Positions 840-23,925 of a stretch of DNA of 23,925 bases are shown piece after piece (the stretch's first letter is position 1; each line of letters starts with the position of its first letter). Under the pieces are notes generated by a model, which had not been told where the DNA came from, searched no databases, and was given only the letters and a program-made list of their open reading frames with translations. This stretch comes from Aureococcus anophagefferens (taxonomy: Eukaryota > Sar > Pelagophyceae > Pelagomonadales > Pelagomonadaceae). The translations under genes and the position numbers were made by a program. The DNA is taken from assembly GCF_000186865.1 (NCBI RefSeq), contig NW_008705595.1:172520-196444 (forward strand), in the 5' to 3' direction.

Positions 840-3800
840 ATGCCACTTCGGTGCGTCTATTCAGCCTCTCTAAAATATCATCCTGCAATAGGTTGGAGAT
901 TAAAAAGCGGCTCTCTGCACGGTAAGGATGCTGCAAGTTCATGCACCGACGCTCGAAGGCTGGCGGTAGGTCGGACCGCGTGAAGTGTGTAGACTTGCAT
1001 CCGACCGAGCCATGGGTCCTCTCGGCACTGTTGTTCGTCGGCGTGCGTATGTACTTGCTCAAAGAAATTGCGAGGTTCAGGTATTCTGGGAACATTTTTC
1101 TTTGGGACACCGAAACTTGCTCACTCATCAAGTCGTGGGAGATTTGTGAACTGCCCGTTCGTTCTTGTAAATTTATTGCGCGTCGCTCTCAATTTATTTG
1201 CGCATCTGGTGCGCACTCCAGAGAGTGTATCACTCATTGGCATTTGTATGGGGCATAGATGACATGCGATTGCGGATTTATAATTATAACACCATGGAAA
1301 AGATCAAAGATATGGAGGCCCACGCAGATTACATTCGCTTTGTAGAGATCCATCCAACTATGCCTTACATCTTGTCTTCATCAGATGATATGTCGATGAA
1401 GCTTTGGGATTGGGACAATAATTGGGACTGCACATTGACCTTTGAAGGTCATGCCCATTATGTTATGATGTGTAAGTTTAACCTTAAAGACACGAACACG
1501 TTTGCTTCGGCTTCACTCGACCGAACGATCAAGGTGTTAGATCCAGACAAACAAATCGCGTGATTCTTTCAACCTTTGCTTTACGTGATCTCTTGATTAT
1601 GTTCATGACATCTTTTTAGGTATGGGGTTTGGCAGCGCAGCAACCTCATTTTTCTCTTGAAGGTCACGAGAGGGGCGTCAATTGTATTGATTACTACCCT
1701 GGCGGTAGGAAGCTGCTAATAGACTCACTCGTTCATAGCCTCACCTCTTAGGTGACAAGCCTTATATACTCTCCGGTGCTGATGATAAAACTGTTAAAAT
1801 ATGGGACTACCAGACCAAGGCTTGTAATACACTGCATACTTTCAAAGGAGAAACTGCGGTGGGTGAACATCCTTGTTAGGTATCCAAACACTGGAAGGAC
1901 ATTCCAATAATGTTTGTTCTGTGCTTTTCCACCCTCGACTACCTGTACTAGTCTCTGCATCGGAGGATGGGACCGTGCGGATTTGGCATGCAACAACATA
2001 CCGTGCCGAAACTACTCTGAATTATGGACTTGAGCGTGCGTGGTCGATTGCTGCCGCAAAGGAATCAAACGGGCTCGCCATTGGCTATGACGAGGGGACC
2101 ATCCTCATCAAGCTTGGCCACGACGCCCCTGTTGCTTCCCTTGACACGTCGTTCCCGCGCCTCCGTGGAGACAAAACTTGGAAACCAAGATTCTGTCTGT
2201 GCAGACATACGGGCAAGCTAGTTTGGGCACACAATAATGACATTCAGTCTGCTTCGCTCAAGGGCTTGGCATTAGATTCCATCGATGGTCAAACATTGAT
2301 TCAATTGAAAGCAGAGATACAGTGCATAGCAACCTTGCTCTAGGTGAGAAGCTCAATCTGGCAACAAAAGACATGGGCTCGTGCGAGATATTTCCGCAAA
2401 CAGTGCAACACAACTGCAATGGGCGCTTTTTGGTCGTTTGTGGCGATGGTGAATACATAATATACACGTCCCAGGCTCTAAGGAACAAAGCGTTTGGACA
2501 AGCACTTGATTTTGCATGGTCTGCTGTCTGTGGCACTGTGTCTGTTCCAACAGCGGATTACGTGCTTTGGCTCGTTGACACATTTGCAGGTTGGAACTGG
2601 AGACTTTGCCATTCGTGAATCTTTGTCAAGGGTGAAGATTTTCAAGAACTTTAAAGAGCACCGAACGATCAAGGCACCGATTTCCTCGTCTGAAGGGTTA
2701 TTTGGCGGAGCGTGTATTGCTGTAAGAGGTCCTGATTGCATCTGTTTTTTTGATTGGGGCGAGGGCGCGTTTCTATGCAAAGTCGATGTGGAGCCCTCTG
2801 CAAGCGCAGCGCAATAATATATCTGTGTTTGCCCTTGGGTGGGTTGATTCTTGACTGAATTGGATGACATGCGAATTTTGGTTTGACATGTTTCACATAA
2901 TCTTTTGGGGAATTGAATCGTATTTGCTGATATATAGTGCTCATAGGCCGTCTATTGGAATGAGACTCAAGAGCTTGTACTTCTTGTATGTGATGAACAG
3001 GCATTCGTGCTTAAACATGACAAAGACCTCGTTGACAGATCCATCAGCGAAGATTCGGTATCTCCAGAACTGGGTGTACCTGGGGCGCGAGTGCTCAGCG
3101 TGTGGGCTACGAATGATTGCACCACCACCTCCCCCTCCTTGAGTGTAGGTTTGAACCAGAGCATGAGATATCTGATAGGATTGTCAAGGGCCAATGGGTA
3201 GGAGATTGCTTCATCTTCTCCAATGGCGCGGGCCGATTGAATTATTTTGTCGGTGGTAACACCATGACTTTGTGTCACCTTGATCAACAAAGTACAGGGC
3301 CACTCTTCATGATTGGCTACTTGCCAAGGGAGGACAAAGTGTATCTCATGGATCGCTCAAGAAACGTTTTCTGTTATCGAGCACTGCTGGCTGTTTTACA
3401 GTATCAAACCGCTGTGGTTCGGCAGGACTTCGAAACAGCCAACACGATCCTGCCAGCAATACCAGAGACTGAGCATTCGTCAGTCGCACGCTTCCTTGAA
3501 GCGCAGGGTTATAAAGATGTTGCACTTGAAGTTTCCAGAGATCAAGACCATAAGTTTGACCTCGCGCTTGAGCTTGGTAAGCTTGATGAAGCGACAGTGC
3601 TGCTTGACGCTATGCCGGCGCACGACAAGGATACTACAGACTCAATGACCAAGTGGAAGCGTCTTGGTGACCTCGCCCTCGCCAAATGTGATCTATCCCT
3701 CGCAGAGCGTTGCGCTAGTAATGCCAGAGACCTTGCCGGGCTGCTCATGCTGTATACTGCAGTCGGAGATCGTGCAGGAGTGCAAACTCTTGCCGGGAAT

Positions 3801-4451
3801 GCAGTCGCACAAGGTAAATTCAATATAGCGTTTGTTTCCTTCTTTGTACTCGGCGAGATTGAAAAATGCTTCGAGCTTCTTCTTGACACAGATCGAATTC
3901 CTGAAGCTGCTTTTCTAGCTCGTACTTATCTTCCTTCCCAGATTTCGCGTGCTGTCAAAATTTGGCGCGAAGATTTAAAGCAGGTCTCTGACCGAGCCGC
4001 GGCAGGGCTTGCTGACCCGGAAGAGTACCCAAACTTATTCCCAGATCTTGAATGGGCTTTAAAGGTCGAGAGAGTGTTCAAATTGAACCGGCATAAAACT
4101 GTTCTTGCGTCTGAGTTCACCACCGCCAAGGATGATCTTGATTTGGATCTCATTGCCCTTATGAAACAGCAATTCTCTGATGGTGCTATGGACGAGCAAC
4201 CTGGTGGGACTCAGGATGCAACAAATGGAGATGAAGAGGGAGCAAAGGTTGATATCTCTACAGGCGTGGATGACAATTTTGACCCGGTTTCAAGTGATTT
4301 AGGAAATCAGACTCTCTCGAATGATTCCAGTCCAGGTGTCAATGACTCTGGTATTTCGGACACGTCTGAAATTGTGCCTGAGTTGAATGTCAATGATGAA
4401 GCTGATGCAATACTGAATAGCGATTTTGGTGATGATGACGATGATTGGTGA
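840..4451 (+). CDS. COPB2: Coatomer subunit beta' (beta'-COP), 13 exons
   Basis: Beta'-COP is the WD40 plus alpha-solenoid subunit of the COPI coat on Golgi-to-ER vesicles; its N-terminal propeller binds dilysine cargo tails. Exons by conservation and splice signals: 840-850, 892-921, 970-1029, 1081-1208, 1259-1533, 1620-1704, 1752-1823, 1880-2147, 2205-2287, 2344-2525, 2590-2799, 2947-3101, 3149-4451. They sum to 2862 nt, a clean 953 codons plus stop (family about 900). The N-terminus reads [19 protein letters not shown]. Hallmarks include [94 protein letters not shown] and [22 protein letters not shown]40 repeats fill roughly residues 1-300, then a second propeller and a helical solenoid. 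The C-terminus is an acidic tail ending DDDDDW. Exon 11 appears to end at a GC donor. Identity is near certain; the small junctions 2147/2205 and 3101/3149 are inferred. Confidence 0.96.
2800..2946 (+). other. Probable GC-AG intron in COPB2
   Basis: The upstream frame reads through VDVEPS and then meets a TAA, with no usable GT donor before the stop. Splicing from gcaagc at 2800 to the acceptor catag ending at 2946 gives VDVEPS-AVYWNE, which matches the beta'-COP family spacing (IEIQP..-.IFW..) with no gap. At 147 nt it is the longest intron found here. Confidence 0.65.
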
Positions 4452-4789
4452 TGATTGAAGATAACACATATCAATTTGATAGAACAGCTCGTCCCCATAT
4501 GGTCAATCCGCAGTTCGCTAGTAGTATTAAGTCCTGCGCAGCATAAACTCCGCGGTATAAACTCCAAATTGCCACCCGGATCTGGGACACGATGGAACAA
4601 CGGCGATTTGAAGTCCAAGCTCCGACATACCAGGGCTCCTGGGAGAGCCTAGGCGCCCGAACCCGCCCTGGGAAAATCCAACGGACTTCCGCGGACCTTG
4701 CAAACGGACCTGAGTTCGTGACTTAGTCGCCTCCCTGGCCGCGCTCCAGTGCCTAATGCCAGGTGCTCCCTTTCTATCTGTCGGGGTAA

Positions 4790-7760: not shown

Positions 7761-10700
7761 TCACTTTCCGCACATACTGATTCCAATCGACCTATGCATA
7801 TATGCTACGGAAAGCAAAAATCGTGCAAAGCCACCGACCTTATTGGCGATTGAGTTATTGACATTCAACAACTCCCACTTTTGAACTGGATATCCAGTGA
7901 CAATACACGTGGGCAGATCAGAGGCATAAAGTCCAGCATGTACAGTTCCCGCTGCTTGCTGCTTTGCAGGTAACTGCTGATCGACAGCTTTATCCACGCA
8001 TATAGACAACACCCAATCCCTTATCTCTTCGCGATCGTCTTCTCGGGGAAGATACTGCTGTAGAGGCAACTCAAACGGGAAAGGCACATTGGTTGCATCT
8101 GCGAAGTCAGCATTATCGATGTTGTCGATACTGCCCTCTTCGATGGCTTCGGTGAGATCTATGTAACGATTCAAGAGCACAAAGGCTAAATTATCATGTC
8201 CTTGGTCCCGTGCCATGATTCCAGCTTGATGAAATGCTTTATCGATTGGAATCAATCCTGAGTATCGAATTAATGTAATGGATACTTTTAGTGCTATGTC
8301 TTTCAATCCATGCTTTGTGCAGATAAGATATAAATTATAAAAATGGGTAGTCATGAGTAGCTGCTCGAAGCCATTTGCGCCTGAGATACCAAGCGCATCG
8401 TGCTGTGTCCCTTGATGAGAAGAACCAAGGCTAAAAAGAATATCTCGAAGCTCTGATACTGAGTTTATATGGGCATCCTGCTCCGGAGGGTTTGCGTGAT
8501 TTTGGCCCAACACGGCCATGACTAGGTCACGATACATCTGAATGTTGGGTCCGGGCGGTGGGGCCCCGTGTTGCTTGAGAGTCCGCACGGCCTGAATTAA
8601 ATCGCCCTTGGAAGCGACGATTTGTGCAGCTTGCAATCCAGCATACTTTGCACGGACGGAGAAGTGGATTTGTTCTCGATCTGCCATCTGCCATAGTCGA
8701 TCCCACTCCTTGCGATCCGCGAGAACATCTAGAGCTGCCGTCCTGTGCCCAAGCTCAAGTAGTCCATCGGTGTCTTCGGCCGATCGCAATGCAGATTGAT
8801 AAGCAGCATCGACTTCCGCCTCCAACGTGCTAGAACCTATGGCCAGTTCACGGGCCTTTGCCCAGCACCGCCCTTCCATCGCACACCTTACCGCACCATC
8901 TATGTCGTTCAATTCACGCAGCAATTCGGACGCTGCCTCATGTCGACCAATCTCCCTTAGCTTCAGCGTCACATTAGTCACAATATCACGAAGCTTTTCT
9001 GGTGACATATGCCGGCGTGCAACATCGATGGCGCACTCCCATATTTCCTCCAACTCTTTCGGATCTTCAAGGAGTCCCGGACGGGCATTCAAGTAGGCCT
9101 CAATAGCGCGGCCCCACTGTTTTTGCTGTTCCCATTGTTGCCCAGCGCTCAAAAAGTCTACCTTAGTACCTCCAGTGCCACGCTGCGCTTCGGCTTGTGA
9201 GTAAGCCAGGGAAACTTCGGCAAGCTGATGGGGTAAGTGGCGCTGCGCAAGAGCCAGGGCCTCTGTCCACATACCTGCATCGCGGTACATCGAAAGGGCA
9301 AGTTCGGGCTTTGCCGCCAGCATGAATAACTCTTCTGCGTGTTGGTGTTGGCCCGCGTCAGCTTCAGCGCGCGCGTGAGACACATAGACATCTGGCGAGG
9401 CTGATGGATCATACTTGTTAGCGACCGCAAGTGCTTCAGCCCATGCTTGTTGATGTATGTACATATCTATTGCTTCACGCGGTTTGTTTGCCTGGATGAA
9501 TTCTGCTTCTGCCTCCTTGTAGCGCTCTTCGTCCTCAAGGTAAAGCGCATGTTTCAAATGAACGTCAGGCAATTTCCCTGGACACGCGGAGCGAGCTAGC
9601 TCAAATGCATGATCAAATGCTCCCGACTCTATTGCATAGTCAATGGCCGGCTCAATCAGACCCTGTTTAGTAAGCAATTTGGCCCCCGCATCACCACCCA
9701 GCGAAAGTGCCCACGCATAAGCTACGCGCTTTGACCACCATGGAGCTTGGCAATTCGCATAGCCTCTTCCCACATGTCATTCGTCCGATACATGTTCACT
9801 GCCGAAAGCCACTCACCAGCTTCACAGTAGTGGTGCTCAGCATCGCGTAAACTTCCCTCTGACTCCAGATGCTGCGCAAGATACTGATGGGTCTCTTTTA
9901 GGAGCTCTCGTCGATGCTTTTCAACAAGTTGCACCATCGCATCGTATTTTCGTTGCTTTTTATACATATTTATGGCTAAATCTGGCTCATCGACTGTCAG
10001 ATAGAGCTGTTCAGCATCTTTCAGGTTGCCTTCTGCCTCAAGCTTTTGCGCATGCGATATGTACAACAAACTGACCTCCCGAGGTTCCATGTAGGACGAA
10101 GCTATTTTGTGGGCCCGATCCCACAAATTTGCTCGAGTGTACATTTCAACGGCCTTATCTGGTGCACCAGCTGCCACATAAAATCGCTCAGCTTCGCTCG
10201 TGTCGTTAGAATCTTCGTAGTGGCGAGCTAGGCGGCGAAGATAGGGCTGAGCTATATCCAAGTCGACGTTCTCTAACATCTGCGCTGCTTTCGTCCATTG
10301 CCGGGCACTAAGCGCAGCATCGATTGCTTTAGAGGACATGGATGCTTCGATGTAATGATTGATAGCCATCTCAACTTGATTATGCTCAAAAAGATAATCG
10401 CCCCATAATTCTTGTAGCTCAACGACTCGCCCCGGGAAATGTTTCCGCGCAAGCTCCACAGCTTTGCGAAATGAGGCACCCTTCAAGTATGCGTCCATGG
10501 CACGCTGTAGCTGGTCCATACGTTCATAAAACTCGCCCGCCTGTTCATGCAGCCCACCAGCCGTGAGAGATGCTGAAACACGTTCCAAGATGGATGGTGG
10601 ATTGTTAATACCATGCTGCTTGACGAGCCGTGCAGCACGCCCGGGCATTCCGCCTCTTAGGTACAATTCGATAGCCTGGAGGAAATCGCCTTCCATTTCC

Positions 10701-13281
10701 TTTAGTTGCGCGGCCTTTGCCGCCTGATTTGAATCTAGAAGGTATTGGAAATGATCCTGCCGCATTGAATTAGCATCTGGGTGCGATCGCTCTTCTGCAA
10801 TTGCCACGGCACGATCAAAGTTGTGCAGCTGCTGATGCATTTGGATAGCTTCGTCAGTTTTCCCTTGAACTAACAGAATAGTCTCCGCTTCCTTTGCATC
10901 TTTTCGAAGCAAGGCATGCCTTGCTCGCACCAGGAAGTAGTCTGGCCCCATAGCACTTTCGATGATGAGTTTATTGAGCTTGTGCAAATATCGAGCGCGG
11001 CCAACGTTCCCCAGAGCGGCTGCACAACGCTCCGCAATGAGTAAATTCCCACCCAAAAGTGCCATTTCCTCGAGTTTTTTCCACATGCCTTCAGCCTCTG
11101 GTGAGAGCTCCAATAACTCAAGAATGTCTGCAGCACGCTCATAGGCACGATCATCAATAGCGGTACCAAATTGGATGAGAGCCTCGTCGAGCAAGTAGGA
11201 TGCCGTTGAAAGTTGTTCGTCAACTATTACCTCTGTACGACCGTTGATGCGCTCTATGTCTTCAACATCGCCCTTGATCTGGTGAACAGTAACTTGGTCA
11301 GGAGTATGAATATTATACCATACACACAAGTTGTTGCGGTTTTGCGCAACAACCACGTCAGAGTCGGGAACCCACTGGACATAGGTGCAGTAGTTTAAGA
11401 GCGTGGTCCGTGTTTGTGTTTCAATATCATATAAGTGTAGCTGACGACGCCGGTCTCTGAAAAGGAGCAAGGAAGCCCGCCCATTCAACTCAAGCCAGTC
11501 AATTTTGGAGTCTTGGGACACTGTCGTTGAACTCCCAGTCACAAGATCTTTGATATTGATAGTCTGTGCATCCAGCAAGTATGCAATTTTCTTATTATCC
11601 GGCCAGCTTGATCGTTCACGCTCGTCATCCAAAGGCGGATTGCCATCCGTTGGGTTAGGGCGTTCATTTATTCTCACTGAAAGAAGGTGACCCGAGATGT
11701 GGTCGGTGCGCACAGTTCCAAGTGCTTCATTGCAACCATACTCGACGAGAGCCAATTCCCCAGCATGATACACAATACAGCAGACTGGATTATCAAACAC
11801 AAATTTTTCGTTTCCTCCATTTGACCAAGATATTTCGGAGAGTTTGTAGGTGGCTAGATCACCGAGTAGCAAAGTTTCAGTCGACGTGCCGTGATCCGTA
11901 GTGTTTGCAACCACGTAGCGGTCTTGAAAGATATTGATCTTAGTTATCTCACATCCATAAAGAGATTTGAGCACAATGCGAGTGCCCGTTTCAAGACGCT
12001 TGACAATCACTTGAGAAAGCGAGGAATATGTGAACTCAAACTTACCCTTGTAACGATATCGCCGCACACAAGCATCATAAAGATCAAGAGAACCAAACAG
12101 AGATCCAATGGCTAGTCGAGTGCCATCGTTTTTCCAAGCTACTGATGTTACCGCGTAGAGATTCTCGATCACCTTGGGTCCTATCTCCTCCCACAAATCT
12201 TGTCGTTGCTTGTATGTGTAGGTGTAAAATGAATTCCAATTGCCAAGCACCACGGTCTCGCCAGTGGGATTAAATGCGGCAATTGTAAACTCACCACAGA
12301 AACAGCTACCCTTCGGATTGGGCTCGGCATCACCGCCACGAGGCGAGTCTGAGTAATCAAACCTTTTTTCGATCCCCCCCTGATCGTCGTAAAACACCAC
12401 TGTGCCGTCGTTCCCACCAACGACGATCGAGTGCCCCCAGGCAAGTGCATACGGTACACACCTAGAAGAATTTTGTTAAATAAATCGGTCGGTCACTGAC
12501 ATGACACGGAAAGAGGGCGAATGATGAGCTATTTTTGTATTGACAAGACCACCTCCAGCCTGCATTGGAGATACTGCGTCAGATCGGGCAAGGGAAACGG
12601 AAATCAGACGCGTATACAGGCCTGGTGAAAGAAGAATCGGTGGATTGAGCCATCAATATGTGATGAACAAACTCCGTGCCCATCAGTCGAACTTGCCACC
12701 GCGCACACATATGAATCTGTAGTGTACAAAGTTGCCGGTTTATTGGTACGAAGCTGGCCAACTTTGACCTTGCCTTCTGCAAGTCCGTACCTGTCGGACA
12801 GGTGATCACAGAGCTATTTGAAATTTAAATTTGGAATGAGGATTCCATTGCCAAGTGTTGTCCAAGGCGCGGGGTGTGACACGAGCTCATTTGGCCTGCT
12901 TGAAGGCCATGTTAATCCAGTAATTGGAGAAGCTTGCAAAAACTTGTTACAGATAGATTTTTTATCCCCCCATTCTAATCCAAGTTTGTACACAAAAACG
13001 ATGTTATCGCTCTGGGCAATGGCTAGCTTGGAAGAGTCTGGAGAGAAGTGCATGGCCCTCACAACATATGTTTTGGGACCCTTATCTGCCGGCTTCGTGG
13101 AAAATTTGTCAACGGGATCCCCTTGGTCGTCAAAGAGTCGCACGACTCGGTCCATGCCACACACTGCCAGCTTGCGGTTATTCGGCGAATAGCAAATAGC
13201 TGTAATCTTGCCATCGTGAACCCTCCCCGAGGTGGTGCCCCCATTAGCGGGTAACAGAGTGCACAAGTGACGAAGCTGCAT
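7761..13281 (-). CDS. IFT172: Intraflagellar transport protein 172, 4 exons, one frameshift
   Basis: IFT172 is the largest peripheral subunit of IFT complex B; it links trains to cargo and acts in turnaround at the ciliary tip. Its presence implies a flagellate stage. Exons on the minus strand: 13281-12881, 12790-12618, 12573-12501, 12461-7761. The start MQLRHLCTLL matches the family. Two WD40 propellers (DKFSTKPAD, HFSPDSSKLAIAQSDNIVFVYK, WGDKKSICNKF, LVEYG, VRINERPN, VDWLELNG, VAQNRNNLCVWYNIHTPD, FGTAIDD) precede a long TPR-like solenoid (DYFLVRARHALL, MYKKQRKYDAMVQLVEKH, FEFALLNRYIDLTEAIEEG-like end, CIVTGYPV). With one missing base near 9730 restored the length is about 1782 aa, close to the animal protein (about 1750). 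Frame is lost exactly inside the conserved ..RIAKLHGG|.KRVAYAWALSLGG.. stretch, with no room for an intron. The exon 3 donor is ambiguous: gtcagt at 12500 or GC at 12518. Confidence 0.95.
9722..9740 (-). other. Apparent 1-nt frameshift inside IFT172
   Basis: On the minus strand the frame encoding MWEEAMRIAKLHGG reads into QSA and a TAG, while the conserved continuation KRVAYAWALSLGG starts within the same bases in another frame. One extra A in the AAA run (plus-strand ttt 9730-9732) restores HGGQKRVAYAW. Both sides are conserved, so this is an indel in the sequence or the gene, not an intron. Confidence 0.85.
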
Positions 13282-13427
13282 AACTTACGACTGCAGTTTG
13301 ACTCAAGTTAAACCGTTCACGTATCGCGCTGTCCGTAGGAAGTTAGGATAGTTTATTACAATAGTAGCCCTAACGTTATGACCGTCGCTTAAAATTACCA
13401 AAAAAATACTTGGGGTGGTAATTCGCC

Positions 13428-13827: not shown

Positions 13828-14098
13828 GTTCGACGCACGCGCACGACGCCGAACAAGTTGACGGCCAGCAACCAGAGAGTCCAATCGATCAGTGGTCTAT
13901 CAGTTGACTCATGGACTTTAGTTACTCGCCTGGGCTCGCGCGTCTAACTTACCGGGTCGCTGGAGGCTGCAATCCGAGTCGGTCCAAATCGGCCCTCTGC
14001 ATTATGGTGGGCGCCAATGTGTTTCGGACGGCAGGCTGAGCTCTGAAACAAAATCTAGTGTCCGAGCCCAAGGCTCGTTGACGATCTTTGAGCTCAAC

Positions 14099-14879
14099 AT
14101 GGCACGACCGGCGCTAGTCTCGCTCTTGGCCCTAAAGGCCGCAACTGGATTCGCGCCTACGAAACCGATGAAGCGTGCCTTTTCACTGTTCGCTGAGAAT
14201 TCTGAAGCATTTCCTTTTCTGAACCGCCCGGAGAAACTCGACGGTCTGTCGGTGTCGTTTATGTCGACTAGGACACTTATTCTGGTAGGCACGATGATCG
14301 GCGACGTTGGGTTTGATCCGCTCCGACTTGCTGAGGTGCAGGTGGACCTAAGTTACGCGCGTGGTGCTGAAATAAAGCACGGGCGCATTGCAATGCTCGC
14401 TGGCAAGCCGTGTCTTCGAATCCAGCTCAGGGTAATTCAGGTAATGTCACCAATGTTCGCATCAGGCAACTGTCGGATTCCTCGTACAAGAATATGTTCA
14501 CCTTCCTGGAGAGGCCTACCAAAATTCGCAACCGCACACATGCCCTGAGTCTTGCAATCATCCTTCTTATACCTGGCGCTTGATCACTCTCATTGTCATC
14601 CATAGGCTCAAGGCGCCGTGGACTGTGCCATGGGCAGCTAATTTCCAGATCTTGCTACTTGCAGGCTGCGTCGAGCTTGCCACTGCAGACAAGACTTACG
14701 GCGACACACCGTGGGACCTCGGATTTGACCCACTCTGCTTCCAGGAGGGCAAGTCACAAGCAGAACTTGATGACCTTGCTCTCAAGGAGCTCACAAACGG
14801 CCGTCTCGCTATGATGGCCTTCGTCGGTATGACAGTCCAGACGCTACTCTTTGACAAGCCACTCCTCTCCTTTTCGTAG
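14099..14879 (+). CDS. Light-harvesting chlorophyll a/c-type antenna protein, 4 exons
   Basis: A plastid antenna protein that binds chlorophyll and carotenoid in the thylakoid membrane. Exons 14099-14243, 14289-14398, 14466-14548 and 14606-14879 sum to 612 nt, 203 codons plus stop, normal for red-lineage LHC/FCP proteins. The presequence MARPALVSLLALKAATGFAP is a signal peptide ending in an ASAFAP-like site with Phe at +1, the mark of bipartite targeting into a complex plastid. The mature part reads [21 protein letters not shown]. Helix 1 carries AEIKHGRIAML (Glu-Arg chlorophyll motif), helix 2 is ANFQILLLAGCVELATADK, then GDTPWDLGFDPL and helix 3 KELTNGRLAMMAFVGMTVQTLLF. Exon 2/3 joining needs a GC donor. 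Subfamily (Lhcf, Lhcr-9-like, Lhcx) cannot be settled by eye. Confidence 0.93.
14399..14465 (+). other. Probable GC-AG intron in the LHC gene
   Basis: Joining CTC at 14398 to GCAACTGTCGG at 14466 gives GRIAML-ATVGFLVQE, exactly the expected family sequence, and keeps the total CDS in frame. The donor is gctggc; the acceptor is catcag. The only in-phase GT alternative (14431) would insert ten residues into transmembrane helix 1. Confidence 0.6.
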
Positions 14880-15330
14880 CAGTGTCTTGGCCTGAGTGTT
14901 CCAGGTAATCTGGACATATTCCGATTGGTCGCGGACGGAACCCTCAGTATCAGCCAGCCTATCCGCAATATGCGGCATGGAGTAAATTTGCCGCGAGCCC
15001 TGGGTCCGAAATCACACACCAATTACCCATGATTAACGCCACAAAAAACGTGGCCCAGGAACCCGCGGTCAATCACGCGCGACCCTGGCGCGACCCCCCC
15101 CGCCTGCCGACCCGTCTGGTTATTGACTGAGTCGCCAGGACGAGTTGGACACGGGAAACCCAACGAAGCTGAGTTTTAGAGCTGAGTTTGCGACTTGCCC
15201 CCCTCCTTAGTCGCCCTTAGGAGCCCCGGGCCTGGCGCCATCTCTGCCCAGGGAGCCCGAGCAGGGAGCCCGTAGGGTCCGTGGGATGGCGGCGAGGTGC
15301 GAAGCGGGGTCGGGGGGGGGGCTCTTCCGG

Positions 15331-15356
15331 GCCGCCGCGCGGCCGGTCGCGGCGGC
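15331..15356. repeat. 9-bp-arm GC hairpin
   Basis: gccgccgcg and cgcggcggc are perfect reverse complements around an 8-nt loop that is itself nearly self-complementary. Such stems are expected by chance more often in DNA this GC-rich. Confidence 0.8.
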
Positions 15357-15454
15357 TGGTACTGAGACTACTGAGTCCCAGTATGGGGGGCGGCCTGCCA
15401 GCCCGCGGGAAAGCCTTGAACCGTTCAGGCTCCTAGGTCCCAAATTACGTGACG

Positions 15455-15525
15455 GCGTTTTTTACGTGAGCCGTCGCCACAGCGTTTGTTACGCGTCTTT
15501 ACTCGTATTTCACGCGTTTTTTACG
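15455..15525. repeat. Three spaced copies of a 12-bp motif
   Basis: gcgttttttacg occurs at 15455-15466 and 15514-15525, with a one-mismatch copy gcgtttgttacg at 15482-15493. Related shorter phrases lie between them. Confidence 0.8.
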
Positions 15526-15968
15526 CGGAGCTGTTTTTTTGTCTTATTTTTTTGTTTCCGCCGGGGGTCCGAGATGCAAACGGCGTCGATTTAGATTAGA
15601 AACCGCCCTCACCTCCTTTCCGTCGACTAGGACGCCCGGAACGCGTCCCAGGCATCTGGAACGGCCAGGAACCAACGTTTCGACCCGGTATCGACCCGGG
15701 AGGCGTTCGCGGCCCGCGAAATCGACGGCTCCCAGACGCCCGCCACGACGTGCGAACACGCGCGTTCAAGAAGTTCGCGCGATTTGGACGCGGCGCCCCC
15801 CCCCAGGACCCTCCCAGCTTAATCGTGACGCTCAGTCCGCCAGGAACCGGCGTCCGGGGACTGCCCTTGCTATTTGAGCTGTGGTGGCTGGGCTGATCTA
15901 GGAGTCACCCAAAGGAAGGCTTGTGTCCCCTGATTTGTGAGAAACGTCGCCCCTTAGGTGGCATCGAC

Positions 15969-18900
15969 TCAAGGCAAAGCATGGTCATTGACTGCCGTGG
16001 CCACCCGACGCGCACATGCTTCCGCGGCGGCGAGCGCGCTGGCGTCGTTCCCTGACCAACCGCGGCAACACACGCCGGATTGCTCGCCAAGACGCCTCCT
16101 CAGCTCGCTTAGGAGCAACACGTAGCGCGGTGCGCGCTGCACTGGCAGGATGGCTAACGATGCAAGGGTGAGCCGTCGTGTGTTCGCCGGCTGGAGCTCG
16201 CAGCACTTTAGGAATGCCTCAACAGTCTTCGACTTTGCCCGCAGCGCCGCGAGATCATCCCAGGCCACCGTGTAACTCGCCACGTAACACCCGTAGCACC
16301 TGACCAGCTCCAGCTCATGCGCCTCGAAGCAGCCCCGCCAGTCGCCGCTCTGCTCCGCAGCGCGCAGCGCGGCGGCGAAGCGGCTGGCAAAGGCCACGAT
16401 ATCGTCCAGCGGGCCAAAGAGCCGCTGCGCCGCGCTGCTAACCTCCGCGCCGTCGACGCCGTCAACGACAGCCACACCGGCATCAATTTGCGATCCCCAA
16501 AGCCGCAGAGGCGCGGCAAAGACCTCAGCTAGAATGTTTAAATCGACCACCATCCGCTCTTCGGTCTCACCAAATTCAGCAGCTGCCTGCATAACACCCT
16601 CCATCCGTCGACAAGCTGGCACGCCATCCAGAAGTGAGAGGACAGCTGTCACACCAGGCGATGGTGAGATCAAGCGCCGAAATGAGTCACGGAGAAGGCA
16701 CAGAGCGCCAGCAGCCTCACCCGGTATGTCGTGCCGAGGTATCGGGTGCCAGAAGTGATGGGGGATTTCACTATCAATGTGCTCAGCGACAGTCGCGGAT
16801 AGTACATACGCCAGTGTACTTGCGGTTGTCTTGTTTCCGACAGAAAGATGCCCATCAAAGCGTTGCAGGTCACCGAGGCGGGACTGTAGCTCAGCAACAG
16901 CCACATCAGCCAAGAGCCTGATGGCAAGGGCCTGAATTGCACCAGACGTTGAACTTAACAGATGAACAGCGTGTTGCACGACAGTCACGCCAAGATTGGC
17001 ATGATGGTGTGCCACAACGCAGATATAGTCTTTATCTGCGACGTGGCCTGCTCCGAGTCGCTTCCACGCAGCATCAAGTGTGGCAATAGCGGAAATACGC
17101 ATATGAGCAAACCTGAGCCCCGATGCGGTGAGGACGTAGCCAAGTTTAATGTCTGTCATGCATGTTACATCTGTTCCAGGGGAGTGAAGAAGTGCGAGTC
17201 CAAGGCTAAAAAACTGACCAGAGTCAGCGGTCATCGGGTCAGCAGAGTCAGCACCACCCTGCGGTCCGCTGCTGGAGACAACAGTGGCAGCCTTGTCCAG
17301 AACTTGGGAGCACGCTAGCGACGTGCACGCGTTAAGTACGGGCCAAGCCAACGAAAATGGTTGCGCCATAAGAGCCCGGCACGCCCGAAGCTCTGCGTTT
17401 ATCACGCGTGGATTGTCGGCGATGCCTCCAACTCGCAACATTGCAAGAGTTGCCATAGTGCAATCTTGGAAGGAGTCGCGCTGCAGGCCTCCAAAGGGGG
17501 GTTGCTCCTCTGCACCGATCACCTCAGCGTCCACGTGGAAGCTAGACGAGGAGCGGTACGAGGAAGTTTCATATCGAGGTCCAGCGTCGACCTGGTCTGT
17601 GTACCACTCCATGAATGCCGTGGATGCCACCTCCGTTAACCATCCAGGTAAAAATACAGTGGCCAGCATAGATGCATCATTGATCTCCCCGTTGGCTGTA
17701 GAGATAAGTTCACTGATTGCCTGTGCTCCAAGTCCCCAGCAAAGCACCAGATTATCTGAAGTAACGCATCCAATCCGAGCTGCATTTGCGCGTTTTAGTA
17801 TATCAATGACGGCCATTCCAATTTTCAAAGCCAATGCCTGACGACCCTGGCGCAGGTGGCACACTAGTGGCATCCGTGAAATATCTCGAAGAAAAACGAG
17901 CTCGCCAATAGCCGCATCAATACTGAATTCGTTGAATTGGCTTGGGATCGCATCAATAAGGAGAATGGCACGCTCTGCAGTTGTTGCAAGGGGGAAACAG
18001 CCTTGCAGTGCCTCTAATGTGCCGGCAAGCGCGCGTACGCTGAGTTGTTGCGCGTGGGATATCCATGCTAAGCGATCTGTCTTCAAGAACATGCGGCACA
18101 CGAGTCTGAACACCTCGTCGACGAGGTCGAGCATCAACGGGGCTGTGTGGTCTGGTTTCTCACGTGATGCTCCACCGGAGCGCACGTAGCTAGCACAGCA
18201 TATTGCGAACAAAGCATCTAGGGATGCGACTGTCTCAGTCAGTGCAGACCGCCTCTGCTCCTCACCAGTTCCATCATCGTCCCAATCGGCACCAAGGACA
18301 TCCAACCACTGAAGTGGAGCGGCAACCGCAGTCATGAGTGAAACATGCAATTCTGGTTGAGCTGGGGTATTCGATGGTGCTAACGATGGTTGTGAAGATA
18401 GCTCACGAGCGGCCGAGATCTCAAGAAACCGATTCCACTCGTGTTCGGCAACTCCCTCTTCCGTGTAAGAAGAACTGCCTTTCAAGGATAGCTCCCTGGA
18501 CACACCAGGGCGTGTCAAAAGTTCGACTTCACGTGGGATGGCATCAATAGCCGTCTGCTCGGCGGTGCGTGACGAGGATGGGATCCAAATTTCCATCATG
18601 GGACTAGGGGTGCGCTGCTTGTTATCATCGGAGGGGGTTCCGTGGTGTGATACGCGCGAGGTATGCATCGGTGGTGGTGGACTTTCATGCAGAGGTGACG
18701 TGGGCACCTCTGACTCCAGTGTTGGTGGCCGTAGTCCTGGGAGAAAACTACTGATATCAGCGGCGAGAGCACGTCTGAGGGAAACTCTGTGAATATGTGC
18801 ACGACCTGGTCGTATTGCGAAGTTTGCGAGGGTTGTTGCAAGCGTTCTAAATGCAGCAGCAGGTTCTCCTGGCGCGCGCTCTGTCAGAAAAATATCTAGG

Positions 18901-21171
18901 AGCGCATGGAGACCATAAGTAAACCGCGACGGCCAGAGTCGAGAATCATCGACAAGAGCGTCTGCGCTCGCAGCTGCATGAATCGCCCGGACTGTCTCCT
19001 GGCCAGGGCTAAGCTGCTTCCATCGGAGGAGTTTCTGTAACTCCGGTGTGTAGGCGCTAGCGCTGCACTCTGACACTAGTGTCGTCTCGATTGCCAGCCA
19101 TTCACGTTCCCCGCCTGCTGCTGCAGCTGCCTGTGCAACTGCGCCAGACCGCGTCGAAGCCGTCGAGAAGAGAACGTCACCGCGCCTTGGGGCTCGCAGC
19201 GCACCTCCAAGGGCAACCGCCGCGCCACCAGCAGACATGCGACGTCCACGCTGCCTCGCGGCACCTCGCTGGAGGTAGCTCGGCATTCTTTTGTCCATGG
19301 CTTTGACTCCACGGCCCATAGACACTGAAGATGGCAACGGCTCGGTCATTGCAGTCAAGGTTGGGCTGTCATGTTCGAATGGCTCAAAACAGGCGAGTTT
19401 ATGTGCGCCATCTACAATAGGAGAAGCCTCATTTTCTTCTCGACCTTCGCCATCTACCCATTTCGCTGTCGAGGTAAGCACAGCGCCCCGTGCCTCTTCG
19501 CAAGCCAAGGGCAGAAAAGCGAATGCAAATATGTCCCGTGGAAGTTTACAACCGCAGTGAGCAAATGAAAAGAGCAAGTGGTACTTCCGTAGATCATCCA
19601 TAGGAAGTGTCACTCGGAAGCACTCCTCCCACATGGGACGATTCACGTGATAGTGTGTTGAGCTGCGGAACTGGCAGTGGCCCACATGGCGTAGACAGCC
19701 GCGCGCTATGTTGGGAAGAGTTTTGCCAGCATCAGATATGAGGTGCGCGCGAACTTCAACGGACCGTGCTGCGAGCTTGGAATCCTGAGAAAATGAACCT
19801 GATACCAGTGTGACAAAGAGACTATTCCGTCGCCTATCGTCCATGATCGGCTCGGCAAATGTTGCGGCATCAGCACAAATGCCACCCTCTGGGGGGCGTA
19901 TGCGGTCTACTGGAGTGACGCTGGTACCTCCTGCAAAATGTGCCCGAATGGACAACTCAAGGGCGGCAGCATGCCCTAGACGTGCTGGAGGGACGCACTG
20001 GATAGACGCCGCAAGCTTTTGTCTGCCCTTGTCACACGCATTGGATGCGCATAAAGGTTGCACAGTGCTTTCGTCAGCTGACGCCCTGACGTCGCTCTTC
20101 TCTTGTTTGAAAGATGCAACCTTGCAACCGCCATCCAAGCCACAACCTGCGATAATCCGGGGCAGACGCGCAAATATGTCGGCGGCGCGCTGGTTATCGC
20201 TCGTTACTGGCCGCCAAAATGGCGCTCCAGGCGTATCCCACAAACAGTTCGCTTTTTCTGAGTCACTCGATTCGAAGACCCATAGATCGTTGCGATCAAG
20301 CGCTGCGCTCAAATTTATAGCTGCGACGCCTAGAGGTCGCCGGAAAGCTGCGACGTCGTCCACCAACAAATCGAACCTAAGAGCGCCATAGAGTGGATGT
20401 ATGAAAGCGTTGGGATTTGAGAGACACGGATTATTTGTCCGGACTGCTCCATGGCAGCATCAGTTTTGACAGCTGTAAACCGTGCATCTACGCCGAGCTT
20501 GCGCGTCTCCTTGAGCAAGCCACTGTTGCCACGGCTCTCATCATCACATGCGGGACTCTTGTCGCCATCAGTTCGCAAACGACCGACGCGATATGCGCGG
20601 CAAACAAGCCAGATGCCTTTGTCACGTAGCTCGGAAAGTAGAATATCTCGAAACACCACACGCTTGCGCACTACTTTCTTCGGTAGTGGCTGGCTCTTGA
20701 GCGGCATGCGCAATGTCGACGCTTCCGACGAGAGAGCAGCCTAGAGGAGATTGTTCCAGAGAGACGGGATCGATCATATGAGACGCTGGACATGACGAAC
20801 GCTGCTGGCCGCGGACTCGGCGATCGTGAGAGGCTAGATTTACGCTGCCTCTGTGAATTTGACCAGCCATGGTGGAGGAAGACAGAGTCGTCGCGAGGAG
20901 CAGCCACCAGGCGTTCCTCTGTGAGTGGGACAAAATCTTCGCCCACTTGGCTCCATAGGCTCATGTAGAAGTGCCTTGGCTCTTCGCCACGTGGAAGACG
21001 CCGCAATTCAACGTCAACAAAAATGCGGCGCGACACGCTCGCGCTAGAGGACGTCCTTCTTGCGCGTGCTAGGCTACAACACCGATGTAGGGCGATAAGA
21101 CGTGATGAGGAACAATTGTTGATAGTTGCGAGATGACCATCTGCGGTGCGCGGCGACTCAAAGAAATCCAT
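15969..21171 (-). CDS. Chimeric Rho-family GEF: DOCK-type N-terminus and C2/DHR-1 with a C-terminal Dbl (DH) domain
   Basis: Predicted to activate a Rho/Rac-family GTPase at membranes. Exons on the minus strand: 21171-20785, 20740-20481, 20376-15969, giving 1684 aa in frame. Residues ~45-240 match the DOCK N-terminal region (RRIFVDVELRRL, FYMSLWSQVGEDFVPL, VFRDILLSELRDKGIWLVCRAYRVGRL, AAFRRPLGVAAINLS). Residues ~398-560 match the DOCK C2/DHR-1 lipid-binding domain (SLFVTLVSGSFSQDSK, VEVRAHL, YHVNRPMWEE, FAFAFLPL). A DOCK-like helical stretch follows (PELQKLLRWKQL). I find no DHR-2. Instead the last ~200 residues form a DH domain: GETEERMVVDLNILAEVFAAPLRL (CR1), AFLKCCELQP and AILPVQRAPRYVLLLSELRR (CR3), ending AVNDHALP. 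No SH3 precedes and no PH domain follows. DHR-1 to DH is one exon, so the fusion does not rest on splice guesses. The exon 1 donor could instead be 20796 (12 nt shorter). Confidence 0.88.
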
Positions 21172-22853: not shown

Positions 22854-23732
22854 TCAAGGACTAAAAACAACATATTTTTTCTGTATGGCGAGACGGCAGA
22901 TGGGACATTCATCGATTGTACTACTGCAGTCACGGCAGACGACGAGATGCATGCAGTCGAGGAAAACCACATCCCTTATCCCATCGAGGCAGACAACGCA
23001 AGAGGCTGCCATTGCCGCATTGCGTGCTGCCTTTGCCTGCATAACACGGGGAAGAAGACTTCCCACTGCAATGGAAAGCCTCTCCAGAGCCTCTGATTCA
23101 AGGTTGATGGGCCTGACGGCCTCGAGCCAATCAAAAACACTTGTAGCAAAATCTAATTCTGGGCTGGCTTTGTTGGAGATATTTGCTGCTTCAGCAGCCT
23201 TCGATAGGATGCCATTCCCAAATATTAATTTACCACATATCTGGTGAAAGGTCTGCTTATGACCTGCTGCTGCAGCTATCAAGTCCAAAAGCTCCGAGTC
23301 AAAGGCCAGATACGTAGATTCCAAAATAAATGGCGACTGTTGACCCAGGAATGAGAGCTGATTGTGTAGATTGATAAGCATGCAATAGAATTCATCGTAC
23401 ACAGAGCAGGCCTGTTCACGCTTACGAGACTCGGAGATGAGACATCGCTTTGACATTAAATTGAGCTTTGCCCATCGCTCGATCTGCGCCTGGAGACTTT
23501 TGACGTGATGTGCACACTGTGTTCCCACTGCAATCAGCAAAAAGAAGGTAGCAGCAAATGACCAATAATGAAGAATCATGCGCACGCTTCGTAATCTTTC
23601 TAGCGCATGAAAGACATGATTTGCCACAACTTTGCCCACCCTGCTCGAATGCTGGACCGTAACAGCATTCCTGACATATTCATACACAGGCTGCCCCGAA
23701 AACAGGGCGAGCGTATCCTGAAAGTCTGCCAT
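22854..23732 (-). CDS. Membrane-anchored RING-HC protein, probable E3 ubiquitin ligase
   Basis: An intronless frame encodes 292 aa from the start MADFQDTLALF to a TGA at 22856-22854. Near the C-terminus, residues ~245-282, lies a C3HC4 RING finger: CVVC, then DCMHLVVCRDC and CPIC, with all eight zinc ligands present. This form, close to the C-terminus and followed by a short basic tail, resembles the RING of IAP, MUL1 and CGRF1-type ligases, which recruit an E2 to ubiquitinate bound substrates. Residues ~55-72 (LHYWSFAATFFLLIAVG) form one likely transmembrane helix. The remaining ~170 residues are helical with no family I recognise. Substrate and membrane are unknown. Gene limits are secure; the name is generic. 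Confidence 0.85.
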   Translation of the reverse strand: MADFQDTLALFSGQPVYEYVRNAVTVQHSSRVGKVVANHVFHALERLRSVRMILHYWSFAATFFLLIAVGTQCAHHVKSLQAQIERWAKLNLMSKRCLISESRKREQACSVYDEFYCMLINLHNQLSFLGQQSPFILESTYLAFDSELLDLIAAAAGHKQTFHQICGKLIFGNGILSKAAEAANISNKASPELDFATSVFDWLEAVRPINLESEALERLSIAVGSLLPRVMQAKAARNAAMAASCVVCLDGIRDVVFLDCMHLVVCRDCSSTIDECPICRLAIQKKYVVFSP

Positions 23733-23925
23733 TCGAAATCAGTACGACCTATAGGCGGTACCCAAAACAACAGCGCCATACGCTGAATATATAATATCCC
23801 ACGACCCAGCCTGTTCCGTGCCGCTGAGCGCGAAATCCCTCGGGCGCGCAGTCATAGGACAGAAACCAGCAGTGCGCGAAACGCCGAAGGCGCTGATATT
23901 GCATACGCAGCAGTATTTCTGTCCG
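23733..23925. promoter_or_regulatory. Upstream region of the RING gene with a TATA-like stretch
   Basis: On the minus strand attatatat-type sequence lies at 23797-23787, about 55-65 bp before the start codon, a plausible distance for a TATA element with a short leader. The rest of the stretch to the window end shows nothing recognisable. Confidence 0.3.

What the first reader, a model, noticed from the sequence alone, without database searches (positions are those of the whole stretch)
15969..21171. A DOCK scaffold carrying a Dbl (DH) GEF domain in place of DHR-2
DOCK and Dbl proteins are the two unrelated classes of Rho GEF. Here DOCK-type N-terminal and C2/DHR-1 sequence, a DOCK-like helical middle, and a C-terminal DH domain with recognisable CR1 and CR3 lie on one polypeptide. 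I see no DHR-2. DHR-1 and DH share a single 4.4-kb exon with no stop, so the link does not depend on splice prediction. It implies that a PIP3-reading DOCK platform was fitted with a different catalytic engine. I do not know of a described case.
Basis: partly seen in the sequence, partly recalled or inferred. Interest (0 to 1): 0.88.

Follow-up and report, generated by a model that had tools for sequence, protein, structure and literature searches.

The report
DOCK scaffold with a Dbl engine
One algal gene carries the scaffold of a DOCK protein but ends in the catalytic domain of the unrelated Dbl class, at the point where more distant relatives carry DOCK's own catalytic domain, so evolution likely swapped one Rho-switch engine for another.

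Summary
One 1496-codon frame (15969-20459, minus) encodes a DOCK C2/DHR-1 (E 8e-23) and a Dbl DH domain (E 3e-17); no DHR-2 was found in it. Relatives turn this into a traceable event. Four proteins (P0005, P0007, P0008 and the N-terminally short MMETSP transcript P0009) share the scaffold but end in a divergent DHR-2 whose profile matches DOCK2's (E 1e-12). The match stops at residue 1205; the window gene goes on with an 80-residue linker and the DH. The DH has a 65-67% identical paralogue in the same genome; that match starts at an ATG and ends with the DH. Third-position GC rises from 0.50 to 0.71 in the DH (paralogue 0.99). P0002 (99%) has the same C2-to-DH frame; P0003 and P0004 (about 80%) have scaffold and DH. 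The scaffold model matches DOCK5's solenoid best, by a modest margin; the DH model matches DH domains. Exchange activity, lipid binding, substrate and transcript are untested, and absence of DHR-2 elsewhere in the genome lacks a positive control. Nine literature searches listed no DOCK-Dbl chimera.

The parts
15969..21171 (-). Whole gene: DOCK-type N-terminus, C2/DHR-1, helical scaffold, linker, DH domain. 21171 is the ATG of the upstream frame.
   Evidence: splice junctions of the two upstream exons not resolved
20881..21171 (-). Upstream exon 1, homologous to the N-terminus of DHR-2-bearing relatives
   Evidence: tblastn P0005 1-99 at 21180-20881, P0007 2-104 at 21183-20878, P0008 15-71 at 21099-20884
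20573..20668 (-). Upstream exon 2 (homology extent)
   Evidence: tblastn P0005 105-136; P0007 115-153 at 20665-20540
15969..20459 (-). Large open frame, 1496 codons plus stop, holding C2, scaffold and DH
   Evidence: P0002 encodes the same frame from residue 33 to the stop with 8 differences in 1464 residues
19500..19829 (-). DOCK C2 / DHR-1, residues 211-320
   Evidence: Pfam PF14429 E 8.4e-23; DOCK1 DHR-1 structure 3l4c E 6.5e-14
16845..19082 (-). Helical ARM/HEAT-type scaffold, about residues 460-1205
16605..16844 (-). Linker, residues 1206-1285; no detectable sequence homology to the DHR-2-bearing relatives or to the paralogue
   Evidence: 64 of 80 identical to P0003
15984..16604 (-). Dbl homology (DH) domain unit, residues 1286-1492; identity to the paralogue starts at M1286
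   Evidence: Pfam RhoGEF E 2.9e-17; paralogue alignment; fold; GC3 shift
16575..16577 (-). CR1 glutamate, E1295 (role recalled)
   Evidence: Glu in the 5 of 7 other own-genome DH rows that cover this column; the other two have a gap
16122..16157 (-). CR3 motif LAILPVQRAPRY, residues 1435-1446
   Evidence: P1439, Q1441 and R1442 invariant in all 11 rows
15987..15989 (-). C-terminal helix asparagine N1491 (role recalled); the protein ends five residues later without a PH
   Evidence: Asn in 5 of the 6 other own-genome DH rows that cover it, Asp in L009

Best explanation
This is a DOCK-type gene whose DHR-2 catalytic module was likely replaced by a copied Dbl DH domain, giving a protein predicted to bind membrane through its C2 and to switch on a Rho-family GTPase through the Dbl mechanism. 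Shown: C2, scaffold and DH share one frame; the scaffold is homologous to genes that end in DHR-2; one DH elsewhere in the same genome is far closer to this DH than the six others found there; the DH segment has a different third-position GC from the rest of the frame. Inferred: DHR-2 is the ancestral state and DH the derived one; the copy came from the source-like gene or its ancestor; the DH exchanges nucleotide; its substrate is a Rac-like protein such as the one at G000:C19. Expected mechanical consequences, also inferred: without lobe A of DHR-2 the DOCK dimer interface is gone; without lobes B and C the ELMO PH contact site is gone; the nucleotide-sensor valine is replaced by the Dbl contacts to switch 1 and switch 2; and with no PH of its own the DH would rely on the DOCK C2 for the membrane.
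For: Domain hits in one frame. Four DHR-2-bearing relatives: P0005 alone matches DOCK2's DHR-2 at 2.6e-8, the four-sequence profile at 1e-12. Homology ends at residue 1205 (hhalign; scaffold profile 47.7 bits vs best of 200 shuffles 6.1; DHR-2 profile finds no window-gene row above shuffles). No significant match of P0005's DHR-2 in the window (best E 0.37) and none at E 10 in the genome. Source-like paralogue: 67% over 167 of 167 residues of the DH core, 65% in the 11-row alignment where the six other own-genome DHs are 22-39%; DNA 349 of 473 identical. Boundaries at M1286 and the end of the DH. GC3 0.50 scaffold, 0.50 linker, 0.71 DH, 0.99 paralogue; the DH segment is 8.9 s.d. above the mean of the (overlapping) windows before it, reckoned. 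Three further records with scaffold plus DH, P0002 with C2 as well. Folds. A Rac-like GTPase in the genome, Rac1 best in PDB, E 9e-38, and 4 RhoGAP matches.
Against: No transcript or protein evidence for the window gene. The Aureococcus record P0004 lacks the C2 and lacks 33 linker residues (1215-1247), as if an intron had been predicted near the junction; P0003 has only the end of the C2 and a duplicated stretch, so C2 plus DH in one protein rests on the window and P0002, which are nearly the same sequence. The relatives carry no organism names, so orthology rests on full-length homology and a single DOCK-C2 hit in this genome (searched exon by exon), not on synteny; the branch between the two groups is long (1.71). 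The genome searches for DHR-2 had no answered positive control; the tool itself says that such an empty answer shows nothing. The GC3 change-point estimate is residue 1332, not 1286, and the high GC continues into non-coding DNA past the stop (0.62 at 15001-16000). The scaffold's structural margin is modest.
Confidence: 0.82

Rival explanations
1. Two genes or a gene-model artefact: a DOCK scaffold that lost its catalytic part, and a separate DH gene that happens to continue the same frame.
For: P0004 lacks 33 residues near the junction; the linker has no detectable homologue outside P0002-P0004.
Against: One frame of 1496 codons without a stop; the same frame in P0002 with 8 substitutions in 1464 residues; linker 64 of 80 identical to P0003, with an in-frame length difference; scaffold and DH in one protein in P0002, P0003 and P0004 too.
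Confidence: 0.07
2. The DH was inserted ahead of DHR-2 first, giving a double-engine GEF, and DHR-2 was lost later; or DHR-2 survives in an unfound exon or gene.
For: The order of events is not visible in the data; the genome-wide searches lacked an answered positive control.
Against: No significant DHR-2 match in the window, none in the genome with Pfam lobes A and C or with P0005's DHR-2; the stop falls five residues after N1491.
Confidence: 0.15
3. The DH is a pseudo-GEF: it binds a Rho protein or serves as scaffold without exchange.
For: Some animal DH domains are inactive in vitro: the title of PMC10118190 (search listing only) reports this of obscurin's.
Against: E1295, the CR3 motif and N1491 are kept; DH identity to P0003 is 184 of 206 against 640 of 758 in the scaffold.
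Confidence: 0.15
4. The DH came by horizontal transfer.
For: Its GC3 differs from its neighbourhood.
Against: A 65-67% identical DH sits in the same genome, and 40 of the 45 loci fetched by then are 0.66-0.78 GC, which explains the shift from within.
Confidence: 0.03

Closest known systems
DOCK family (DOCK-A/B, e.g. DOCK1, DOCK2, DOCK5)
   Same: C2/DHR-1 (best PDB hits DOCK1, DOCK2 and DOCK5); helical solenoid with DOCK5 as top three structural matches; order N-terminus, C2, solenoid, catalytic module.
   Different: No DHR-2, the domain that a review calls common to all DOCK proteins together with DHR1 (PMC10152721, passages).
Dbl family (DH GEFs: ECT2, Vav, Tiam1, P-Rex1, Kalirin)
   Same: DH domain by profile, motif and predicted fold.
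   Different: No PH after the DH; set on a DOCK scaffold at the C-terminus.
P-Rex1/2 (PIP3-dependent Dbl GEFs)
   Same: A DH engine on a protein that may read phosphoinositides; P-Rex1 is among the PDB hits.
   Different: P-Rex has a DH/PH tandem; here a DOCK C2 would do the lipid binding (inferred).
Aureococcus anophagefferens AURANDRAFT_66200 (P0004), 'DH domain-containing'
   Same: Same scaffold and DH, about 80% identical.
   Different: The record is N-terminally short and its name, as shown, bears no DOCK relation.

Membership tests
DOCK family | DHR-1 (DOCK C2) | tested here: met
   PF14429 E 8.4e-23; 3l4c E 6.5e-14
DOCK family | DHR-2 catalytic domain | tested here: not met
   No Pfam DHR-2 match up to E 1; no match to a DHR-2 profile that does find canonical DOCK. 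So it is built on a DOCK scaffold but is not filed as a DOCK GEF.
DOCK family | ARM/HEAT solenoid between DHR-1 and the catalytic domain | tested here: met
DOCK family | N-terminal DHR3-C2 region | tested here: inconclusive
   Upstream exons match the N-termini of DHR-2-bearing relatives, but Pfam shows nothing in the exon-1 frame and the fold was not predicted
DOCK family | Phosphoinositide binding by DHR-1 | not testable with these tools
   Needs lipid-binding assay
Dbl family | DH domain with CR1 and CR3 | tested here: met
   PF00621 E 2.9e-17; motifs; Kalirin entries 9ifk and 5o33, TM 0.82 and 0.77 by target length
Dbl family | PH domain directly after DH (usual, not universal; recalled) | tested here: not met
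   Stop five residues after N1491
Dbl family | Exchange on Rho-family GTPases | not testable with these tools
   Needs assay

The most novel reading that the evidence does not exclude
A natural engine swap between the two unrelated classes of Rho exchange factor: in the Aureococcus lineage the only DOCK gene found lost DHR-2 and took the DH of a resident Dbl gene at a clean domain boundary, so a DOCK platform now drives the Dbl reaction, with unswapped relatives and a source-like gene both at hand.
Probability: 0.75. Interest if true: 0.85.

Novelty: new variant of a known kind. Interest (0 to 1): 0.78.

Why it matters
DOCK and Dbl proteins open the same switch by different chemistry and structure. 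A DOCK scaffold that lives with a Dbl engine would show that recruitment and catalysis are separable in DOCK proteins, and that dimerisation through lobe A and ELMO gating can be dispensed with. Source-like gene, chimera and unswapped relatives can be compared directly, which makes a question testable: what does the DOCK platform contribute that does not depend on DHR-2?

Tried and rejected
Pfam DHR-2 models as the absence test: in the four relatives lobes A and B show nothing up to E 1 and lobe C at best 0.12, in 2 of 4, so the zero hits in this genome for lobes A and C (lobe B was not searched there) carry little weight. The relatives' own DHR-2 was used instead.

Residual DHR-2 or linker homology: the alignment suggested a weak match in 1206-1280, but with the profile of that stretch all eight rows printed were shuffles; dropped. 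Two structural rows (8xm7_B, 9lxh_B) do extend to ORF residue 1280, so the linker may still fold like the solenoid's end.

In one search the loci L003 and L009 were read on the wrong strand; their rows there are void. Both were read correctly (31% and 22% to the DOCK-DH).

The GC3 change point fell at residue 1332, not 1286 (log-likelihood ratio 22.4, highest of 300 permutations 11.4); the shift is real but its edge is not sharp.

The DH-region protein search returned only P0002-P0004, so the source-like gene's orthologues in other species were not found; its length limits may exclude them.

Literature: ten searches. Nine concern RhoGEF or DOCK; two of these returned nothing, and none of the listed papers is by title or abstract about a DOCK-Dbl chimera. 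Only the top rows of the longer lists were seen. One search was on genome composition. Most subscription journals are not held. Passages were seen of PMC8063744, PMC10152721 (plus its section 10), PMC11788884 and PMC3727952. One other DOCK shuffling was seen (PMC11788884, a table passage: DOCK-C2 with Cse1 in a DOCK1 homologue), not with DH.
Full report
What is there. The window lies on contig C35 (172520-196444) of a 49-Mb genome in 86 contigs. The nearest named relative of the product is Aureococcus anophagefferens AURANDRAFT_66200, about 80% identical, so the source is probably a pelagophyte close to Aureococcus; no call names it. The minus-strand frame 15969-20459 is open for 1496 codons. 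Pfam finds two families in it up to E = 1: DOCK-C2 (E 8.4e-23, residues 211-320) and RhoGEF (E 2.9e-17, residues 1293-1458). By phmmer in the PDB the C2 matches DOCK1, DOCK2 and DOCK5 (best 6.5e-14), and the DH alone matches ECT2, Vav, Tiam1 and P-Rex1 (best 2.5e-4).

Upstream exons. The N-termini of three relatives match at about 21183-20878 (exon 1, which contains the ATG at 21171) and 20668-20540 (exon 2). Splice junctions were not resolved.

Relatives that kept DHR-2. Besides P0002-P0004 they returned P0005 (36% identical over 61%), P0006 (a canonical DOCK, 27% over 8%), P0007, P0008 and P0009; P0009 is an MMETSP transcript without the N-terminal half, and P0005, P0007 and P0008 are single-contig records marked lgn. 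None carries an organism name. hhalign of the two groups gives E 1e-91 over window residues 29-1205 against P0005 148-1393, and stops there. P0005 then has a DHR-2: its C-terminal part matches DOCK2's DHR-2 crystal structures at E 2.6e-8, and a four-sequence profile of the region matches them at 1e-12. Pfam's DHR-2 models do not reach their cut-offs on it, so a Pfam-only reading of these genes would miss the comparison.

Where the homology ends. A profile of the last scaffold stretch (P0005 1300-1393) finds the window gene at 1096-1205 with 47.7 bits; the best of 200 shuffles of residues 1206-1496 has 6.1. A DHR-2 profile (P0005 1484-1960) finds the canonical DOCK P0006 at 51 bits, and no window-gene row is among the eight best rows, six of which are shuffles. 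With a profile of the stretch between (1394-1490) all eight rows are shuffles.

Where the DH came from. Pfam finds eight DH places in the genome, this one included. The DH at C5:79244-79744 is 67% identical to the window gene's over all 167 core residues. In one alignment of all of them it is 65%, and the six others are 39, 31, 30, 28, 25 and 22%. The DNA is 349 of 473 identical. The identity starts at M1286, an ATG in both genes, preceded in the source-like gene by CTCCACAG; it ends at N1491 (the next residue is Asp here and Glu there), and the window gene stops five residues after N1491. Upstream of that ATG the source-like locus holds, by eye, tandem copies of a stretch next to an opposite-strand frame, so the ATG may be its start codon or follow a splice acceptor; this was not settled. 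The source-like frame continues with a likely PDZ (E 3e-5, just under Pfam's cut-off), a weak UBA-like end (E 0.008) and a possible PH (E 0.085). The window gene kept none of that.

Composition. Third-position GC is 0.50 in residues 29-1205, 0.50 in the linker, 0.71 in the DH, and 0.99 in the source-like DH. The highest window of 211 codons starts at residue 1285, one before the DH unit; the DH segment is 8.9 s.d. above the mean of the windows before it (overlapping windows, so a guide, not a test). The one-change-point estimate is residue 1332. The window has 0.535 GC, while 40 of the 45 loci fetched by then have 0.66-0.78. So the DH looks like a piece of the GC-rich genome on its way to the local composition. 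Against this, non-coding DNA past the stop is also 0.62 GC.

Other copies. P0002 (JGI; 99%) has the same frame from residue 33 to the stop with 8 substitutions, C2 and DH included. P0003 and P0004, about 80%, have scaffold and DH; P0003 keeps only the end of the C2 and a duplicated stretch, and P0004 starts after it. Identity to P0003 is 640 of 758 in residues 440-1205, 64 of 80 in the linker and 184 of 206 in the DH. The linker thus looks like translated sequence, although P0004 lacks 33 residues of it.

DHR-2 elsewhere in the genome. DOCK-C2 has one match in the genome, this one. Pfam lobes A and C gave none, with the weakness told above. P0005's DHR-2 as a protein query gave none at E 10; the tool adds that without a known match such an empty answer shows nothing. 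A positive control with a whole relative did not complete in 13 requests. The loss is therefore likely, not proved.

How it would work (inferred). DOCK proteins use a valine sensor in DHR-2 and do not need switch-2 residues that Dbl GEFs use; lobe A makes the dimer; ELMO's PH sits between lobe B and Rac (review PMC10152721, passages). All three features go with DHR-2. The chimera keeps the C2 and the solenoid, so the most likely mechanism is membrane recruitment by the C2 and exchange by the DH on a Rac-like GTPase; one was found, at C19, among the 25 Ras-family loci scanned of 44 matches. The genome also has four ELMO-domain matches and four RhoGAP matches; whether any ELMO still binds is open.

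Novelty. The two classes are described as distinct (PMC8063744, passages) and DHR-2 as common to all DOCK proteins. Nine searches of the held library listed no DOCK-Dbl chimera. I rate it a new variant of a known kind: both modules are known, the combination and the traceable swap are, as far as I could search, not described.

Noticed in passing
window 1-23925; L001, L006 (C35), L030 (C46), L034, L038 (C24): These five loci are 0.52-0.58 GC while the other 40 of 45 fetched are 0.66-0.78: a low-GC compartment of the genome.
   Followed up: partly
P0005, P0007, P0008, P0009 C-termini: Divergent DHR-2 domains that Pfam's lobe models miss (lobe C at best E 0.12) but a four-sequence profile ties to DOCK2.
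   Followed up: yes
P0003 residues 1-250: A stretch like ...LRWRQL... with its surroundings occurs twice, once before the C2 remnant: this Aureococcus-type gene may be rearranged in its C2 half.
   Followed up: no
L043 about 4320-4720: By eye, repeated blocks of roughly 110 bases between the source-like DH gene and an opposite-strand frame.
   Followed up: no
window 7761-13284 minus and 1867-4451 plus: By eye these look like IFT172 and beta'-COP; not searched.
   Followed up: no
window 13922-14548 plus: By eye a light-harvesting-protein-like fragment; not searched.
   Followed up: no
window 22854-23738 minus: By eye a protein with a C-terminal RING-type zinc finger; not searched.
   Followed up: no
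PMC3727952 (passage): A survey reports that RhoGEF was not found in four diatoms, whereas this genome has eight DH places.
   Followed up: no
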